Source of the DNA: Dermatophagoides farinae
Taxonomy: Eukaryota; Arthropoda; Arachnida; Sarcoptiformes; Pyroglyphidae
Reading direction: 5' to 3'
DNA length: 64,000 bases
NCBI RefSeq assembly: GCF_024713945.1
Contig: NC_134679.1
Location: 2,671,001 to 2,735,000 of the forward strand
Shown here: piece by piece, positions 1,774 through 46,206 of the stretch
Numbering within the stretch: position 1 is the first letter of the stretch
Layout of the letters: each line of letters starts with the position of its first letter
The notes under the pieces: model-generated
The model's input: the letters and a program-made list of their open reading frames with translations, nothing else
Databases searched by the model: none
What the model was told of the DNA's origin: nothing
Position numbers and translations under genes: made by a program

Positions 1774-3699
1774 TTCAGATTGCGAATTTATTATTCTTAA
1801 AGCATGTATAAATTTAACTTAAAATGGACATACATGTGATTATTAGATGAGGAAATTATACACACATACACACACATATACAGACACACTCAAATATTAC
1901 ATGGGTAAGTCTGCGAAAAAAAAAACTAGAAATCTAGGCGCATTTGATAAAAATAAAAACAAAATTTACAATGGCAAAATGTAAGAAAAGAAACCCTATG
2001 CGTGTTTACCTGTGTGTGTATGTGTGTTGATTTCTATCCAAAAACCAAATTATAATCTTTCAAAAATTATAATAATAATGTTGATGGATAAAAACAAAGA
2101 AAAAAGCGATAATTATGTTCAGAAAATAGTATCCAAAAGGTTTATGGATACAACAACAACAAAATCACGTGCCGAAATTTTTTTTTTGTCTTTTTTCCTT
2201 GGCATCGGCAATTTTGTGTGTTCAGAAAAAAAACCATTGCTCTTAATTGCTCCAGATTTTTGTTTTTGACTCAAAGATCTGTTTAAATAAAAAAAAATCA
2301 GAACACTACGTTGGCGTTTTAAATCGATTTCCGAATTGCTGTAGGCATCATTACTCCTTATGATGATGATGATGATGATAATGATGATGGAAAAACAATG
2401 GAAAAACAAATATGGATGCAAATCATCATCATTTCAACATTATCATCACCGGGACAATCATTTAGTTTGACCATCAACCAAAAAAAAGTATTCGTAATTT
2501 TTTTTCTTCTATTGTTTTTTTTTCTTCGGTTTCCACACAATCAATTGTGGGTGAATATAATGTAATTCATCTCAATAAAATATCGATCAAACATTCTCTA
2601 ATATCATGGATATTCATCTTTGTCCAGATATATTGAATATAAAATGATTGTGTGTGTGTGTGTTAATGGTTAAAATATCATTTTTCAAACATCATTTTTT
2701 TCTGCTACTTGTTGTTGTTTTTGTAACTAATAATGGCCACCAAATATTCATCAATCATCATCATCATCATCAAGATCGAGATGATTGTCGATATATACCA
2801 ATCCTATTGTAGTTACGAATTTCGTTTTTCAACTACTATTTTTTTTCTCGTTTTTGTTTGAGTTTGGTATATATGTTGTATTTACTTTTTAAAGCATTGA
2901 TATATTTGGTTTTGTGTATTGAAAAAAAAATTTCATAAATAACTGTTTAGGTGGCGATTATTCAACGAAAAAAAAATGATGAATCCATCTAAATATTTGA
3001 CCAAACAAACATAATATACATTGCATATACGAGCATGACTAATAATCTTATCAATCGATTTGAATATAGAGAATTTTCATGTATTTTTTTTTTGGCTTTG
3101 TTTCAACCTGTTTTTACTTTTATCGTTGATGATTTGATCTCATTTTTTTCAGAATATTACTTTTTTGAAAGATTAATTTATACGATTCATTTTTTTTCGG
3201 TTGAAATTTGTTTTGGGTAATCGTATATTTCAGACAGACAAAAAAAATGGAAACCAAAATGACAGTTGTACATTTATCGTTACAAACATAAATCGTCAAA
3301 CATATATAGAAAAATAGTAATATTTGTGAACTTTGAATAAAAATGAAAATTACTTCACGATATAATCGAAAGAAAAAAAATGATAGATCAGAGAAAAACT
3401 TTGTTTTTTTTTTGAACCTAACCTAAACTTTGCCTTTTTTGATCGATTTTTCTTTCTTACTTGTTTTTTCGTGATATAAATTGCAATGTCCAATTTTACT
3501 GAATAATATCTGGCAATGTATTCAAATTTTTGGCCGGTTAAATCATCATTATCATCATCATCATCATCAAACTGATTAGATTTAATTGAATGATAAAAAA
3601 CAACAACAAAATTAACACAACATAAATAGCCCAATGTGGGAAAAATAACGAACACGAAAGATGAATATTTTTTTTTTCTCTATCTTAATGATAATACAC

Positions 3700-3725
3700 A
3701 TGATGATGATGATGATGATGATGAT
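3700..3725. repeat. (ATG)n microsatellite
   Basis: About eight or nine perfect ATG/TGA units in non-coding DNA. Confidence 0.9.
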
Positions 3726-6339
3726 CAATGGTTCCAGGTGTCGACATCGATGGTTAGATGTTTCAACCAAAATTAGAATCAATTTTTTCTCCATTAAATA
3801 TTCATTCAACCAAAATTCATTTATTTAATCATTATAGATGTTTTTTTTTCGTTTTTGTTTTTTGAATGTACATGAATTTAAATTTACCATCTCATGATCA
3901 ACAATCCAAATTGATGATGTTTCAAAAATTGAAAGTTATTGATAGAAAATAAGAGTGAAAAAAAAATATTTTTTTACGTTATTTCTAAGAATAGAATAAT
4001 CAAGCCAAAAAAAATGGGCTAGTTTACCAGGTTTGTTATGTCGGGTTGTTGATTTTTTTCCTCTCGTTCTCTCTCTCTCTTTTTTTATGGTCGTTTTTTT
4101 GGAAATGATCATCTTCATAATCATTTTGATTAAATCTGAAAAAAATAATCTGAAATGATGAATATTGTCATTACTATTTCATATAATATACGACATTTTT
4201 TTAAAATGAAAATGACAATAGAAACGACAATTTCATAATTGAAAATTGAGAAATTTATTCAATCATCATTTATTGAACAAATTATCAACCATTTTTTTCG
4301 GACACGTGTTCGATATTTTTCTGAACACAAAAAAAAGGAAATGATGCATTGCCCACAGAGTTCACCCAGAAGCGGACATTCATCATTATAGATATGATAA
4401 TTGATTCAATTGAAGATGCAAAATTCAAGAAAAAAAAATCATTGACAAATGGCCTAAAGCTTAGCTTAAAAGTAAATTAAATCATGAAATTTTTTTTTTA
4501 CATTTCGGTATTTAATCGGTTCAACATACATGCAAATAACAATGATAATCATTTTCATCACTGATGTTTTGAGTAGGATCAATGCATTCCAATGAACATC
4601 ATCGTATTGTGAGACTACGGAAAAACCATCACCATCATCATCGTCATCATCATTATTACTACTGTGTTTATAATCATCTGCAATACTTATTTTTTTTGTA
4701 AAGGACGAGTAAAAAATGATTATTCCAATTGATTCAATTTGTGTGTGAGAGAGAGAGAATAAATCAAAAAAAAAAAAAAACAATTTGATTGATTGTAGTC
4801 GTCAATTTTTTTTCTAGTCTTCCTTACGGCCTACGCTTGAAGATAGGAAATTCAGATGGATGAATGGCTGACTGAATAGATTCGATCGAGAGGCCAAAAA
4901 AAAAATGAAAATTAAACAAACAATACACATGTTCATGTCATGATTTGACGATTACCCAATCTACCACAAAGTCCTTCAAAAATAAAAATATCGATTTTTT
5001 TTTCTCGCAGACGACCATTGACTACAATTGACGACCATGTCCCGAATTTATTATTATTAGTTTAATATAATGTATATATTCAGACATTCACATATAAACA
5101 ACAATCAATTCAACACATAAACAACAATAAAAATTAACAAATATATAGTTATGGTTGTTATAGACATTATTGAGTATTCATCATAAGAAAATAATGAGTG
5201 TTTGTGTGCGTGTGTGTGTATGAGTTTGTATATAACCTCTATTTTTTTCATTCTCTTTATCATTCTTTCAGGAAAAAAAAATCGAATTAATAATGATGCT
5301 GCTGCTGCAAGGATTATCACAAACCGATTAGATGGCTATTGATTTGTTTAATCAATACCGATTTAACAAAAAAAAAATAGTGATAAAGTAGGCAAAAAAA
5401 AAAATATTGGATAGCCAGGTAGTTGAAAACCAGATTGAAAACAAATCAGAAAAAAAATCCGATTTGATGAAAAAAAAACGATGAATCTCAATCCATCAAT
5501 GATGCTAATGATGATCAATCATTATCTAGATTGATCCATGATATGTTTATTGCCTTTAGGCTACAGATATGATAGAAATAAAATTTCCATCATTTGCACA
5601 CAAATACTTGGCATTTTGATTATGATATAATACATGCAGTTATACTACAAATTAAAAAATAACCAATGATCATTTTATAAATAATAATAACCCATTCAAT
5701 TTTAGTTATAAAATGCACGTGATTTTTGTTTTCTTATCTATCAATATCGATTTTTTTTTTATTTCTATTTATCGATATTATAGTATTATATAGCAGCTAC
5801 AATATTATTATGTCACGAGGCAAAAAAAAAAAAAAATGCACTCGTTTGTCCATTGATCCCGGCGATTTGTTGCTCGGATTTTCTACCACTCATATAATCT
5901 ACAATAAGAAGAGAGATTCGCCCGAATTTGAAATGGAAAATCGATGTGATAATTGTAACGAAAGAAAAATGATGTTTTTTTTCCATTCACAAAAACTATC
6001 ATCACTTTGTTAGAGGATTAATTTTTTCATATTTTCCAATATTTTTCCTAGTAAAAAACGATCTTATTTTTCTTCAGTTAACTTTGGTGAAAGTTAAATG
6101 AACAAAAAATTGATCATTCTTTTTTTAAAGCTAAGATATCCGATTGTTTGAGTTGGAATCAATGAAATCAAAGCAAAAAAATAAAAAATAAAAATAATAA
6201 AAACCAAAAAACGACGAAATCAAAGCCAAACCTACTTGTACAATTAAATGGGAAAAAAATCATAAGACAAATACACTGTTTTAGATAAATAAGGGGAAAA
6301 TGTTCATATTTCCGGATTATAATCATCACCATCGATGCC

Positions 6340-6381
6340 ATCATTATTATTATTATCATCATCATCATCATCATCATCACC
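6340..6381. repeat. (TTA)n-(TCA)n compound microsatellite
   Basis: A TTA run passes directly into about nine TCA units and ends in CAC CAC C. Compound arrays of this kind suggest one-base substitution followed by expansion. Confidence 0.85.
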
Positions 6382-7198
6382 ACCATCCATTCGAAAATAT
6401 TTATTCATCGATCCAAATGATGGAAACAAAAAGGATATCCAGCCAAGCCAGAAAAGAAAATATAATCTAGTAAGTGAAAAATAACTATTTTCCAAAAAAA
6501 ACCACCGATCGTGAACATCAGTGTAAAATCGTTCTACACCATAATGCTATACATAAATCTCATCATCACCAAATAAACAACAACAACAAGCGTTTCTGTT
6601 TCATTTTTATTCGGGTAAAAATAAATGTTATAGAAAAAGAGAGAGAGAGAAAAAAAATAAATCCATCGATAGAGATCAACGACAGAAACCAAACCTGTTG
6701 CCCTTATATGTTTTTTTTTTAAATATCTGTTGATGGTAGATTTTTAGCTGTCCATTTCTTTCGTTTTCATTTTCTATTTTTTTCTAAAAAAAAATCTTTT
6801 GATTATTGGTCAAATGTTGTTGTTGTTGTTGTTGATGATGGTTACTTTATCCGATCATATATATTGGTAAACATTTGTATTTAACATTCGAGTTTCTCCT
6901 CAAAGTACATGCACGTCTTTGTATTATTGTAATTAATAATTTGAAGGATGTTTACAGCTCAAACTCTTCTCGGTTTTTTTTTGTCGTCATCGTCGTCGTT
7001 TTTCTTATTAAATTCGTTATCTTTATCATTATCGACGTTTTTTTTCGCTTATTATTCTCTTTTATCTTTATTTAGAGTAAAATGAGAAATCCAGAAATCT
7101 GAATGATGAAAATCTGTTTTGTAAGAAATAAAAATATTAGAAAAAAAACCGCATAAACATAAAAACAACCACCTGACAAGACTTCCGGATTAGAAACG

Positions 7199-41516: not shown

Positions 41517-41522
41517 TATATA
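41517..41522. repeat. Target-site duplication, left copy
   Basis: TATATA directly before the TGTAAC start of the left LTR, matched by TATATA directly after the right LTR at 46,201-46,206. The low complexity leaves the exact length (5 or 6 bp) ambiguous. Confidence 0.7.
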
Positions 41523-41752
41523 TGTAACATTTAAAAAATTAAATGATATTTTCTATAAATTTCAAACATTTAACCACAACCGATAATTTAGTTATCTGGT
41601 AATTAATAAACACAAACAAAATATCAATCAACATTCTTTAAAATCCATACACAAACTATAAAAACTAAAACACAGGACACGACACTCTTTATCTTTTGAG
41701 ATCATTATGTTTGAAGTGATTTTCATGCTGAATAAAAATAAAATTTTTTATA
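41523..41752 (+). repeat. 5' LTR (230 bp)
   Basis: Begins TGTAAC and ends TTTTTTATA. By eye every base matches the right LTR at 45,971-46,200. It contains CACAGGACACGACACTC and an AATAAAAATAAAA stretch near its end that could serve as the poly(A) signal. The 3' terminus lacks the usual CA. Confidence 0.92.
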
Positions 41753-41763
41753 AGCCAGCAAGA

Positions 41764-41866
41764 AGAAATTTTGTGTCTCAACGAGAAATTTTGTGTCTCA
41801 ACGAGAAATTTTGTGTCTCAACGAGAAAATTTTGTGTTTTACCGAAGAAATTTTGTGTATCAACGG
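41764..41866 (+). repeat. Tandem 20-22-bp repeats after the 5' LTR
   Basis: Three perfect 20-bp units, AGAAATTTTGTGTCTCAACG, are followed by two diverged units of 21-22 bp. The array begins 11 bp past the LTR, where a tRNA primer-binding site would normally be, and I see no TGG-starting primer site there. Because 20 is not a multiple of three, the units are read in shifting frames as FVSQRE, LCLNEK and FCVSTR, which shows that this stretch did not arise as protein sequence. Confidence 0.85.
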
Positions 41867-41871
41867 AAAAA

Positions 41872-44800
41872 ATGACAGATTCACAGAAGATAACAGATCA
41901 ACAAATGCAAAATTTGTTGAAATATAAAGAAGTTCTTCAATCAACGCTAAGATTGATTTTTCAAGAATTTGAAAACGGAACAATCAGTATGTTCCGATTT
42001 ACGTTTGAATTCGCACAATTGTTGTTGCGGATAGAACTCTATGAAAAAGACGTCAGCCAATTTGTAAAAAATAACGCTGAACGATATGATTGTGGTACCC
42101 TGAAATTTAGAACAATGGATAACGAAATGATTTTGAATCAATTGCAACAAAAATATAACGCAATGGATCAAGAGGGTTTGCATAACCCAGAGCAAACTAT
42201 GGCGACAGGAATACGAAATCATTCCCGTGATGAATTTATGATACCTGTCAATCCGAGACCCCATTCAGTACTTGACGAACGTTCTATGGCTTATATGGCA
42301 CAGACTCAACGATCTCAGTCAATGATGGATATTGCCAACCATCAGAATGTTCAAAGATCAAATCTGGCTCGATCTTTTTCGGCCATGGAAACAGTACCAA
42401 CACGTGAACAGTTAACAAATTTTTTTGAACCAAGTCATCAAATTCCAACTTCGTCGACGGGACGAAATAATGTTAATCGATTTAATGACCGAAACTACCA
42501 CGAAACGGAGGAAATGTTGATACATTCTAATTCAAACGATGCTGGGCAACATGAGGATAATCAACAAATAAATTGGCGATCGTCAAATGATAATTTGCAA
42601 AGTAATCAACATTTTTTGCCAGAACCTCGCCCTAGATTGGCATTTCAATCGTTTGGAAATCAGGATGTTAACCATACAACACACAATCTTCCCGAAAGAC
42701 GCATTCCGTTTAAAGCAAACAGAGTGCAATTTATCAACAAATTTGATGGCAATTTTCGGAATTTTAATGATTTTTTCCAACCATTTTGCAATAATGTTGA
42801 CAAAACAGATTTGGATGACGCAACAAAACTGCAAATATTGAAATCAAAATTGGATTCGAAAACAAGGACGTGGCTTGAAGGTTACTCCACTGATGAAGAT
42901 TATGAGAATGCTAAAAGGACATTATTGCGGCATTTTAATTCAATGTTTGCATTGAAAAACGATGTATTAAAAAAGTTTGCGGAACTTCAACCGCCATATG
43001 ATGATCATGATTTGGAAGGCTATCGACGCATGATGACTTCAGCTCGAAGTTCATACTTGAGTTTAAAACGTGCCGGGGCAGACGCTTTCACCATTACCTT
43101 GTTAACAAAACAAATAAAGGGGAAGCTATCTCCAATCAGGCTTTCTATCTTGGAAGAACGTTCAGATCAAGAAGATATTGAACAAGTAATCAAATATCTC
43201 GAAAATATTGTTGATAAACTGCAAGACAATGCAGATCCGTTTTTGGTGAATAATAAAAAATTTACAAGACAGGCAAATAGATCGTTCAGAGAAAATCGTG
43301 GCGCCTGTATATTTTGTGGCGATAAAACTCATTCTGCAAAAAATTGTAAACTGGATTTGACAACCGCAGAAAAGCGGCAGCTGGCATTTGATGCAGGAGT
43401 TTGTACTGGATGTTATCAACAAGGACACATCTTTCGCTATTGCCGAAGTGCAGAACATTGTTCACAATGTAATGGTTCGCACAAACTCGTGGATTGTCCG
43501 TCTAAACAAAGCAAATCAAACTGGAGATCACAAACAAATCAGAAATCCAGTGAAAAGGAGAAACAACAAACGATCCCGAAAGCTGTAAATTCTTTGGACG
43601 CCGAGCCACAAGCATTAATTGATTTGAATACTCCTGACAATTCAGAGGAGTCGGAAAATGAACAAGGCGAATGTTTCTCAGTTAACAACATGGAAAAAAA
43701 GTCAATACCACCAATATTGGCACGTGCTCGAATAGACAACAAGAAAGTTACAATTTTACTGGATCCGGGATCGAATATTAACATTATTTCGAAATCGGAA
43801 TGTGACAATTTGAAATTGGATATTTTCAAAAGTAAAATCTCAATAAAAGTCACCGAACATCGATTAAATTCATTTCAAGCATGCTTTGCTCACATGAAAT
43901 TGGGGACAATAAAACGGAAGATTATCTTTCGAATCGTAAATGATGATGATATGCCGATATTGCTAGGACGAGATGATATCCATGCATTTAAAATAATGTT
44001 GTTCCCAGGCGATCGTGAATTGATCCCAATGCAGATGACAACGTTACAACGTCCGGAACCTAGTGAATTTCGAAAAAGTTGTTATCATGTTAAAGCCAAA
44101 GATGAACAAACGGAAAAGCAAAATTTAAATGATTTATTACAACTTGACGATGTTTTTGCTAAATCAAAATTCGATATTGGATTAGTTTCAACCGAAAAGT
44201 GTCAAATTCAGTTGACTAACAACATGCCAATAGTTCGGAAAGTTTATCCGTGCTCAATTGAGGACCAATCAAAAATTGATAATCAATTTAAAGAATTGCT
44301 CGACAATAAAATTATTGAATCACAAATAAAGAAAACGGCAAGATATCATGCCCTTATGGCAGCAATACTGGTCATGATGTTTCTTCCAACTGGTTTCCTT
44401 GCGGGAATACCTACTACTGATCCCATTATTTGGAAAAAAACGCAACATGCGGTGGCAACTGGAACAGAATATCGAACTTATATGGTTGGATTACAAGATC
44501 CGTGTAAGGCATGGGTTGGAGCTAATAAAGAATTTCATCAAGGATATTACACCACTAAAATAAAAGAAAATGAAAACGATTGCCTTTATGAAATGATGAT
44601 AATCTCACAAATTAAAAAACATTGTGATTCTGAAACTGATTTATCATACAAAATCAATAATCAAAGGAAAAAACGCAGCTTAACAGCTTTGGCTTCAACA
44701 GGAGTATATGCAATTGCTACTAATCCAGGCCAAGTAATTTCCATCTTCAACTCTATTATTGGTTTTGTTTCAAATTTTCGTACACAATATCGTGTAAAGG

Positions 44801-45975
44801 CCTATCAAAAACAAACAGAAGAGAAAATTGCTGAAATGGAGCAACTGTTGGAAAATCAAAATCAATTGATTAAAGAATTAAAAGACCAATGGGATGAACG
44901 TTTTTTGAAATACACGTTTACCGAAAAAGCAATGGAAGAATTGGCGGAGATCAATGCCAAATTAAATACAATATATCCTCATTTGATGGCATTCTTACGC
45001 CAAATGCAAATGCCAAGAATCGATGCGGATGTAGACTTTCTTTTCCCAAATATGATAACTGAAAATGAGACCTGGGAATTATGGGAACCTCAAGGTTGCA
45101 AATTTGATGCTAACGATAATGTTTTACAATTGGATTTCATTGTTCCAATTGTTGATCCAAAATATCAAGTTTATCGTGGGCACCCCTTCAAGATTATTCA
45201 AGAGCGGGGGGAAAATAGATGTCTTTTTCGTTATAGTGGGCCACAATACATGTTTGTCAACACTAAACGTGATTGTGCAATAGAGGCGGATATACAGCCG
45301 AATGGTTATCATGCTGAAGCATTCCTTGTATCTCATCCAGATGAATGTAGAATTCAAGCTCCTATGAAGAAAACTTTTTGGCAAGAAGATGAATGCTTCA
45401 CCGAATTTGAATGGAACGATCAAAGAAAGAAAAGTCAACAAATAGATTATGATTCAGAATTCGTTTACATTTATTGTTTAAATCAAACATTGAAATTGGC
45501 AAATGTAACATACCGATGTGAAAATGCTGTCTATCGTATTCCTCGAGATCAAGAATTCACAATTGATGAACATGAATACATTGTGAGGAAACAGACAAAG
45601 AAAGCGAATTTTGTATTGGAATATCATACATCCAGAACAATTAACGCTTTATTATTCCATGATCAATTTGAATACGAAAAATCTTTTAAAAATATCGGAA
45701 TTCTTTTGGACAACTATCAGCATTCAAGTCGTATTGCTCCGATAGAATCAAATTGGACTGTAAGGGGATTGATGATAAACGCGCTGATCTGCTTGCTTGT
45801 TTTGGCGATTATCACTATTTTCGTTGTTATCCTATATTATAAATTCTATCGCTTGCGAAGAAGAACCGCAACAAATATGGAACACCTTACTGCAGTTCAT
45901 CTGAATTATGTTGACAACAGTGCTGAATCCTCAAATCCTCCTCCTGCTACGACCTCTCTTGGGGGGGGCATGTAA
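41872..45975 (+). CDS. Gag-protease-(partial RT)-envelope fusion polyprotein
   Basis: The frame is open from an ATG at 41,707 inside the LTR (1,422 codons), but I prefer the ATG at 41,872, just past the tandem repeats, giving 1,367 residues. Numbering from 41,707: a DUF1759-like gag core starts near 345 (FDGNFRNFNDFF). Zinc knuckles CX2CX4HX4C lie at 534-547 and 566-579, and a CX2CX3HX4C at 585-597. The protease motif LLDPGSN has Asp686, with LLGRDD about 75 residues later. RT N-terminal residues VYPCSIEDQSKIDN to KIIESQ end at 873. From about 874 the sequence is envelope-like: a hydrophobic leader near 882-900, a furin-type site RKKR at 987-990 followed by a hydrophobic SLTALASTGVYAIA, several cysteines and NxT/NxS sequons, a membrane anchor at about 1355-1382 and a short basic tail. 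It ends at TAA in the right LTR. There are no stops or frameshifts over 4.1 kb. Confidence 0.88.
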   Translation: MTDSQKITDQQMQNLLKYKEVLQSTLRLIFQEFENGTISMFRFTFEFAQLLLRIELYEKDVSQFVKNNAERYDCGTLKFRTMDNEMILNQLQQKYNAMDQEGLHNPEQTMATGIRNHSRDEFMIPVNPRPHSVLDERSMAYMAQTQRSQSMMDIANHQNVQRSNLARSFSAMETVPTREQLTNFFEPSHQIPTSSTGRNNVNRFNDRNYHETEEMLIHSNSNDAGQHEDNQQINWRSSNDNLQSNQHFLPEPRPRLAFQSFGNQDVNHTTHNLPERRIPFKANRVQFINKFDGNFRNFNDFFQPFCNNVDKTDLDDATKLQILKSKLDSKTRTWLEGYSTDEDYENAKRTLLRHFNSMFALKNDVLKKFAELQPPYDDHDLEGYRRMMTSARSSYLSLKRAGADAFTITLLTKQIKGKLSPIRLSILEERSDQEDIEQVIKYLENIVDKLQDNADPFLVNNKKFTRQANRSFRENRGACIFCGDKTHSAKNCKLDLTTAEKRQLAFDAGVCTGCYQQGHIFRYCRSAEHCSQCNGSHKLVDCPSKQSKSNWRSQTNQKSSEKEKQQTIPKAVNSLDAEPQALIDLNTPDNSEESENEQGECFSVNNMEKKSIPPILARARIDNKKVTILLDPGSNINIISKSECDNLKLDIFKSKISIKVTEHRLNSFQACFAHMKLGTIKRKIIFRIVNDDDMPILLGRDDIHAFKIMLFPGDRELIPMQMTTLQRPEPSEFRKSCYHVKAKDEQTEKQNLNDLLQLDDVFAKSKFDIGLVSTEKCQIQLTNNMPIVRKVYPCSIEDQSKIDNQFKELLDNKIIESQIKKTARYHALMAAILVMMFLPTGFLAGIPTTDPIIWKKTQHAVATGTEYRTYMVGLQDPCKAWVGANKEFHQGYYTTKIKENENDCLYEMMIISQIKKHCDSETDLSYKINNQRKKRSLTALASTGVYAIATNPGQVISIFNSIIGFVSNFRTQYRVKAYQKQTEEKIAEMEQLLENQNQLIKELKDQWDERFLKYTFTEKAMEELAEINAKLNTIYPHLMAFLRQMQMPRIDADVDFLFPNMITENETWELWEPQGCKFDANDNVLQLDFIVPIVDPKYQVYRGHPFKIIQERGENRCLFRYSGPQYMFVNTKRDCAIEADIQPNGYHAEAFLVSHPDECRIQAPMKKTFWQEDECFTEFEWNDQRKKSQQIDYDSEFVYIYCLNQTLKLANVTYRCENAVYRIPRDQEFTIDEHEYIVRKQTKKANFVLEYHTSRTINALLFHDQFEYEKSFKNIGILLDNYQHSSRIAPIESNWTVRGLMINALICLLVLAIITIFVVILYYKFYRLRRRTATNMEHLTAVHLNYVDNSAESSNPPPATTSLGGGM
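44341..45972 (+). other. Envelope-like glycoprotein segment of the retroelement
   Basis: This part carries the features of a class I-like viral membrane fusion protein: hydrophobic leader, dibasic cleavage site with a following hydrophobic fusion-peptide-like stretch, a heptad-rich region EEKIAEMEQLLENQNQLIKE just after it, cysteine-rich ectodomain and a C-terminal membrane anchor. Errantivirus and insect endogenous retrovirus envelopes have this plan. Which envelope family it belongs to cannot be settled by eye. No separate start context for a spliced env message is visible because the frame is continuous with gag-protease. Confidence 0.7.
45961..45968 (+). other. Polypurine tract of the retroelement
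   Basis: Eight G residues followed by CA immediately before the TGTAAC of the right LTR, the expected place for the plus-strand primer. These bases also encode the last glycines of the polyprotein. Confidence 0.65.
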
Positions 45976-46200
45976 CATTTAAAAAATTAAATGATATTTT
46001 CTATAAATTTCAAACATTTAACCACAACCGATAATTTAGTTATCTGGTAATTAATAAACACAAACAAAATATCAATCAACATTCTTTAAAATCCATACAC
46101 AAACTATAAAAACTAAAACACAGGACACGACACTCTTTATCTTTTGAGATCATTATGTTTGAAGTGATTTTCATGCTGAATAAAAATAAAATTTTTTATA
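45971..46200 (+). repeat. 3' LTR (230 bp)
   Basis: Reads identical to the left LTR. It supplies the TAA stop codon of the polyprotein at 45,973-45,975. It is followed by the right TATATA target duplication. Confidence 0.92.
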
Positions 46201-46206
46201 TATATA
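46201..46206. repeat. Target-site duplication, right copy
   Basis: TATATA matching the six bases before the left LTR. Confidence 0.7.

What the first reader, a model, noticed from the sequence alone, without database searches (positions are those of the whole stretch)
41523..46200. Recent LTR element whose gag-protease is fused in frame to an envelope, without RT, RNase H or integrase
One stop-free frame runs gag, zinc knuckles, protease and the first ~35 residues of reverse transcriptase, then changes at about 44,323-44,340 into an envelope-like glycoprotein. A random deletion of the remaining pol would keep frame only one time in three and would soon decay, yet 4.1 kb is intact between identical LTRs. 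Two explanations: reverse transcription of a spliced env message that joined early pol to env, or a recombination deletion that became a successful non-autonomous lineage that still makes Gag and Env.
Basis: partly seen in the sequence, partly recalled or inferred. Interest (0 to 1): 0.78.

Follow-up and report, generated by a model that had tools for sequence, protein, structure and literature searches.

The report
Dust-mite retroelement fusing Gag to Env
A house-dust-mite genome carries a small retrovirus-like element that has lost its copying enzymes and encodes its core protein and an envelope-like surface protein as one joined frame; it occurs in two related forms with young copies, so it must have borrowed the enzymes of other elements.

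Summary
Between two identical 230-nt LTRs the window carries one open frame (likely start 41872, 1367 aa): Gag (DUF1759 capsid, zinc knuckles), a retropepsin-like domain, about 70 residues leading into RT, then an envelope-like glycoprotein. The RT core, RNase H and integrase are absent. The host is Dermatophagoides farinae. It is no assembly accident: a second copy with the same junction and an intact frame lies 2 Mb away with different flanks, and a sister subfamily (74% DNA identity over 578 bases; two intact copies with identical LTRs, one decayed) has the same junction. The fusion is therefore old, though the intact copies are young. Capsid and protease domains show purifying selection between subfamilies (dN/dS 0.08, 0.09), but recent changes do not. 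Best reading: a long-lived pol-less Ty3/gypsy-type lineage mobilised in trans, making a membrane-spanning Gag-Env polyprotein. No close pol-bearing relative was found in this assembly, so spliced-RNA versus deletion origin stays open. Arabidopsis Athila (separate Gag and Env ORFs) is the closest precedent found.

The parts
41519..41522 (.). target site, TATA; repeated after the 3' LTR (46201-46204); length ambiguous (4-6) within a TA run
   Evidence: flanks printed
41523..41752 (+). 5' LTR, 230 nt, starts TGTAAC
   Evidence: identical to 45971-46200 and to both LTRs of copy 2
41753..41763 (+). presumed primer-binding site AGCCAGCAAGA; same or nearly same core after the LTR in the sister subfamily and L039, AGCCAACAGGA in L040 and upstream of the gag frame of L038
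   Evidence: primer identity not shown; L038's LTRs were not found
41759..41874 (+). leader with 20-21-nt repeats; copy 2 lacks one 20-nt unit
41872..45975 (+). single frame Gag - protease-like - RT lead-in remnant - Env, 1367 aa plus stop (the stop lies in the 3' LTR)
   Evidence: start codon inferred from copy 2 and sister
42742..43137 (+). capsid-type domain DUF1759 (PF03564)
   Evidence: E 5e-9; dN/dS 0.08 over a 202-codon CA segment against the C4 sister
43300..43497 (+). three Cys/His zinc-knuckle-like motifs
   Evidence: translation; motif by eye
43723..43974 (+). retropepsin-like domain (PF13975/PF13650); active-site motif D-P-G at 43762-43770
   Evidence: dN/dS 0.09 over a 126-codon PR segment
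44110..44322 (+). remnant of the lead-in to reverse transcriptase, ends ...KIIES
   Evidence: alignment with L040 and L038; ends before the RVT_1 core
44320..44352 (+). junction; SQIKK..YH shared with sister subfamily, possibly the tail of integrase
   Evidence: integrase origin is a guess
44341..45972 (+). Env-like glycoprotein
44353..44409 (+). internal hydrophobic segment, signal or signal-anchor
   Evidence: hydropathy; a hydrophobic segment is kept here in the sister
44665..44676 (+). furin-type site RKKR, absent in sister
45781..45837 (+). C-terminal transmembrane segment
   Evidence: hydropathy; kept in sister
45961..45970 (+). presumed polypurine tract (eight G then CA) before the 3' LTR
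45971..46200 (+). 3' LTR

Best explanation
A pol-less, non-autonomous Ty3/gypsy-type lineage of the house dust mite. One event joined the lead-in to RT to the end of pol or start of env, in frame, in an ancestor of two subfamilies. The element keeps its cis parts (LTRs, presumed primer site, presumed polypurine tract) and one polyprotein. Inferred mode of action: Gag is made in the cytosol, the internal hydrophobic segment takes the rest into the membrane, and the C-terminal segment anchors it, so Gag is physically tied to Env unless signal peptidase, furin or a helper's protease separates them. Its Gag packages its RNA; RT, RNase H and integrase come from a pol-bearing relative.
For: Shown: two copies with the same junction, intact frames, identical LTRs and unrelated 1.5-kb flanks (2 substitutions and one 20-nt unit apart); sister subfamily at C4 and C2 with the same junction, all four LTRs identical, and a decayed third copy on C10; low dN/dS between subfamilies on CA (0.08), PR (0.09), NC (0.17), TM2 and tail (0.20); open frame far beyond neutral expectation; pol-bearing Ty3/gypsy-type elements in the same genome with similar primer-site strings: L040 (open gag-pol frame, two identical 147-nt LTRs) and L038. 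Precedent: pol-less Athila elements with Gag and Env ORFs under purifying selection (PMC2410132, passages). Inferred: topology, processing, packaging, helper.
Against: No close pol-bearing partner was found: outside the family the best PR/RT match is 28% over most of the query, and the best gag match is 37% over 88 aa, 26% in L040. Env constraint is weaker (0.39 overall, 0.43 in the aligned ectodomain) and the sister lost about half of Env. Recent changes show little constraint: C4 versus C2 dN/dS 0.51 and 0.63 in two overlapping pieces (5 syn/10 nonsyn; 7/17), and both substitutions between the window copies change an amino acid. dS is near saturation in several segments. The relative P0001 has a Gag-PR frame without fused Env. 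Expression is untested.
Confidence: 0.68

Rival explanations
1. Spliced-RNA origin: a spliced message joining the start of RT to the env acceptor was packaged and reverse transcribed, founding the family.
For: Gypsy Env is made from a spliced subgenomic RNA (PMC4276936, passages). The junction leaves a clean Env start with its hydrophobic signal-like segment. Spliced retrotransposed copies are described for human L1 (PMC5860796, title and start of abstract).
Against: The gypsy spliced env mRNA lacks gag and pro-pol, so a donor at the start of RT would be unusual. No parent was found in the assembly to test GT..AG.
Confidence: 0.25
2. Plain internal deletion by template switching during reverse transcription (or DNA recombination) of a gag-pol-env element, in frame by luck and then selected.
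For: Template-switch deletions are common in LTR elements (own knowledge, no call). L039 is another internally deleted element in the same genome, lacking gag, protease, RT and RNase H but keeping integrase and Env in one frame.
Against: No parent with short repeats at the endpoints was found; not separable from splicing here.
Confidence: 0.55
3. Dead-end copies: the shared structure reflects a few recent amplifications of defective elements and their frames are open only because they are young.
For: All four intact copies have identical LTRs; recent dN/dS is 0.5-0.6; both changes between the window copies are nonsynonymous.
Against: The sister subfamily shares the junction at dS about 0.6-2.4, with CA and PR at dN/dS below 0.1 and the frame open through the fused part.
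Confidence: 0.12
4. Assembly collapse at the junction.
For: None found; reads were not available.
Against: Five loci have this junction; the 1.5-kb flanks of the four intact ones share nothing longer than 45 nt at 78% in any of the six pairs, consistent with simple repeats (one 3' flank read for 1252 nt). The published assembly used PacBio reads (PMC11074847, passages).
Confidence: 0.02

Closest known systems
Athila non-autonomous elements of Arabidopsis (Ty3/gypsy; PMC2410132, passages)
   Same: LTRs, Gag and Env coding, no pol, purifying selection, long survival, mobilisation in trans inferred
   Different: Gag and Env are two ORFs in Athila; here one fused frame with a retropepsin-like domain whose active site is D-P-G; animal host; whether the Env proteins are related was not tested
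TR-GAG elements of plants (PMC8704663, passages)
   Same: non-autonomous LTR element with one ORF encoding Gag; transposition shown in Arabidopsis
   Different: no Env, and a similar, potentially autonomous member is reported there
Errantivirus / gypsy of Drosophila (PMC4276936, passages)
   Same: Ty3/gypsy-type element with an Env bearing a furin site and a TM segment
   Different: gypsy has full pol and makes Env from a spliced RNA; Baculo_F homology was not detected here (test inconclusive)
Trans-complemented defective ERVs, above all cattle ERVK D-type; koala RecKoRV and mouse ETn named with them (PMC10924933, passages)
   Same: central part of the element replaced with flanking parts of gag and env kept (cattle and koala); in cattle the defective form outnumbers the competent one and moves in trans
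   Different: cattle D-type elements lack functional genes; the mite family keeps an intact fused frame

Membership tests
Ty3/gypsy (Metaviridae) LTR retrotransposon | two LTRs with TG start, short target duplication, primer site and polypurine tract | tested here: met
   the LTR ends in TA, the duplication is ambiguous in a TA run, the primer tRNA is not identified
Ty3/gypsy (Metaviridae) LTR retrotransposon | pol order RT-RNase H-integrase | tested here: not met
   absent here; placement rests on Gag, PR and RT-start similarity to L040 and L038, which have that order, so it is filed only as a probable pol-less derivative
Non-autonomous LTR element with Gag and Env (Athila type) | no pol, Gag and Env coding kept by selection, multiple copies | tested here: met
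   Env constraint weaker than Gag, and not visible between the most recent copies
Non-autonomous LTR element with Gag and Env (Athila type) | Gag and Env as separate ORFs | tested here: not met
   single frame; sister likewise
Errantivirus-type Env | homology to baculovirus F protein (PF12259) | tested here: inconclusive
   no Pfam hit to it, no match in the genome, but the 14 control genomes did not ring either; single-sequence fold too poor to use (pLDDT 42)
Retropepsin | D-T/S-G catalytic motif (recalled as defining) | tested here: not met
   D-P-G at 5 of 5 family loci and in P0001; D-T/S-G at 12 of 12 other loci in which a D-x-G motif was read
TR-GAG | single ORF encoding Gag only | tested here: not met
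   Env follows in frame

The most novel reading that the evidence does not exclude
Gag and Env are made and selected as one membrane-spanning polyprotein: the protease has lost its normal active site, so Gag stays tethered through Env's first hydrophobic segment, and the sister subfamily has gone further and cut Env down to a two-pass membrane anchor plus helical middle for Gag. The family would then be a retroelement that repurposed Env from entry protein to particle-membrane tether, living on helpers.
Probability: 0.25. Interest if true: 0.75.

Novelty: new variant of a known kind. Interest (0 to 1): 0.55.

Why it matters
Pol-less elements that keep Gag and Env pose the question of what their proteins do for them. 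A fused frame that survived the split into two subfamilies, with constraint on capsid and protease but an altered protease active site and a trimmed Env in one branch, makes that question testable in a small, well assembled genome. The published D. farinae repeat table lists 8 LTR pieces totalling 370 bp (PMC11074847, Table 2), so these elements seem to have gone unannotated there.

Tried and rejected
Env identity: two protein-database searches, Pfam, PDB sequences and Baculo_F in the genome (42) gave nothing usable. A single-sequence structure model had mean pLDDT 42 and was not used for fold searches. A viral-contig scan with the capsid region found no relative. The third protein search gave one relative, P0001, 71% identical over the capsid-protease query: it also reads D-P-G, but its frame ends 39 residues after homology stops, without a fused Env; its 4.3-kb contig could not be read, so whether pol or env follows is unknown.

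Of the other LTR matches, those at C4:3831246, C7:4077677, C7:4557486 and C3:6817404/6833042 were read with flanks for this family's gag, PR and env and for L040/L038 pol; no match at E 1e-3, so they look like solo LTRs or fragments. Those at C4:3500338, C3:6498471 and C2:1420366 were not read. C9:412951-414459 has LTR-like fragments followed by an RT fragment 66-68% identical to L038: a possible old pol-bearing relative, too broken to decide. ARAGORN found no tRNA in the three loci tried, so the primer is unnamed. Troyka (PMC12440569, abstract and passages) was dropped: CG..CG ends and no Env. Ten print searches (listings of at most 20 papers each, passages of eight papers) showed no description of a fused Gag-Env pol-less element; the library lacks most subscription papers. 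The per-site list was misregistered by one base and discarded; one search replaces it. The label '270-codon' printed is wrong; the count there is 250.

Full report
Where it is. The window is G000:C3:2671001-2735000 of a 62,435,336-base assembly. A Blo-t-5-family gene of that assembly matches the Der f 21 structures letter for letter over the aligned core, and the published chromosome-level D. farinae genome is 62.43 Mb (PMC11074847, passages), so the host is taken to be the American house dust mite.

What is there. The two LTRs are identical over 230 nt. The internal part carries a presumed primer site directly after the 5' LTR, a leader of 20-nt repeats, one frame from 41872 to 45975, and a G-run just before the 3' LTR. 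Pfam gives DUF1759 and a gag-type aspartyl protease, nothing of RT, RNase H or integrase. Against pol-bearing relatives the frame follows the lead-in to RT until ...KIIES and then leaves it, short of the Pfam RVT_1 core. What follows aligns at 22-28% identity with the protein in Env position of L038 and the one after the integrase of L039, with hydrophobic ends and an RKKR site.

It is a family. Searching the genome with the Env part gave 17 matches: two at 100%, short sister-subfamily stretches at 37-47%, and others at 25-31%, the best-scoring of these 27%. The second full copy, C3:4777578-4782235, has the same junction, an intact frame, identical LTRs, 2 substitutions (at window 42265 and 42538, both amino-acid changing) and one 20-nt unit fewer. 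Its 1.5-kb flanks do not align to the window's. A sister subfamily sits at C4:3995540-3999074 and C2:1593568-1597102; it is 74% identical in DNA over the 578-base query, all four of its LTRs are identical, and its two copies are 99.1-99.2% identical in the pieces compared. Its 1005-aa frames also run Gag-PR-linker-Env with the same SQIKK..YH junction. A third, decayed sister copy on C10 has it too. The junction is thus shared by 5 of 5 family loci found that keep the region, and one origin before the split is the simplest reading.

Selection. Nei-Gojobori dN/dS between window copy and C4 sister: Gag N-terminus 0.40, CA 0.08, NC 0.17, NC-PR linker 0.29, PR 0.09, RT remnant/linker 0.27, Env overall 0.39 (aligned ectodomain 0.43, TM2 plus tail 0.20); dS 0.6-2.4, partly saturated. 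Against this, C4 versus C2 gives 0.51 and 0.63 in overlapping pieces, so constraint is not visible on the recent scale.

Two new features. First, the protease motif is D-P-G at all five family loci and in the only database relative, P0001, while 12 of 12 other loci in which I could read a D-x-G motif have D-T-G or D-S-G (one search lists 32 protease places, and not all could be read). Together with dN/dS 0.09 this suggests a domain that is kept but perhaps not as a standard retropepsin; activity is untested. Second, the sister has lost the furin site and about half of Env (250 against 554 residues from the junction on), yet keeps a hydrophobic segment at each end and a middle stretch aligning to the helical region. 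That fits Env as a membrane anchor for Gag, but it also fits simple erosion.

How it moves. It has no RT core or integrase, yet copies of both subfamilies have identical LTRs; each needed those enzymes from elsewhere (inference). Candidates in the assembly are L040 (C4; gag-pol in one frame, identical 147-nt LTRs, no Env in the frame) and L038 (C5; gag-pol and a separate Env frame, LTRs not found), whose primer-site strings resemble the family's. Neither is close in sequence (26-28% over the PR/RT query), so the true helper may be missing from this assembly, lost, or distant. Deciding between splicing and deletion as the origin needs the parent.

Context. Athila of Arabidopsis is the nearest precedent found: pol-less elements with Gag and Env ORFs, under purifying selection and long-lived (PMC2410132, passages). 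Here the two are one frame. House dust mites are reported to have a rewired RNAi-based genome surveillance (PMC5805368, title and start of abstract; a search of its text found no mention of LTR or gypsy).

Noticed in passing
L039 (C5:4888000-4896000), 3448-6784: Another non-autonomous LTR element: 474-nt LTRs (5 differences), one frame starting in the LTR and running integrase core - Env, with no gag, protease or RT detected. Only one two-LTR copy; the other LTR matches listed are partial.
   Followed up: partly
L046 (C3:3159000-3168000), 3045-5036, minus strand: A 664-aa open frame related to the Env family with no direct repeats of 60 nt or more found in the 9-kb stretch: possible lone or domesticated env gene.
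   Followed up: partly
L015 (C7:2882091-2886005) and L014 (C7:2786004-2790077): Further Env-related open frames (348 and 479 aa); L015 has another open frame beside it that looks like a copia-type Gag by eye. Not resolved.
   Followed up: no
L034 (C9:412416-415550): LTR-like fragments related to the family's LTR followed by an RT fragment 66-68% identical to L038: possible remnant of a pol-bearing parent lineage.
   Followed up: partly
L040 (C4:2767000-2775000): Compact gag-pol element in one 1390-aa frame with identical 147-nt LTRs: a possibly complete env-less Ty3/gypsy-type element.
   Followed up: partly
D. farinae genome: Published repeat table lists 8 LTR pieces, 370 bp (PMC11074847), although searches list 31 gag, 32 protease and 21 integrase matches.
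   Followed up: partly
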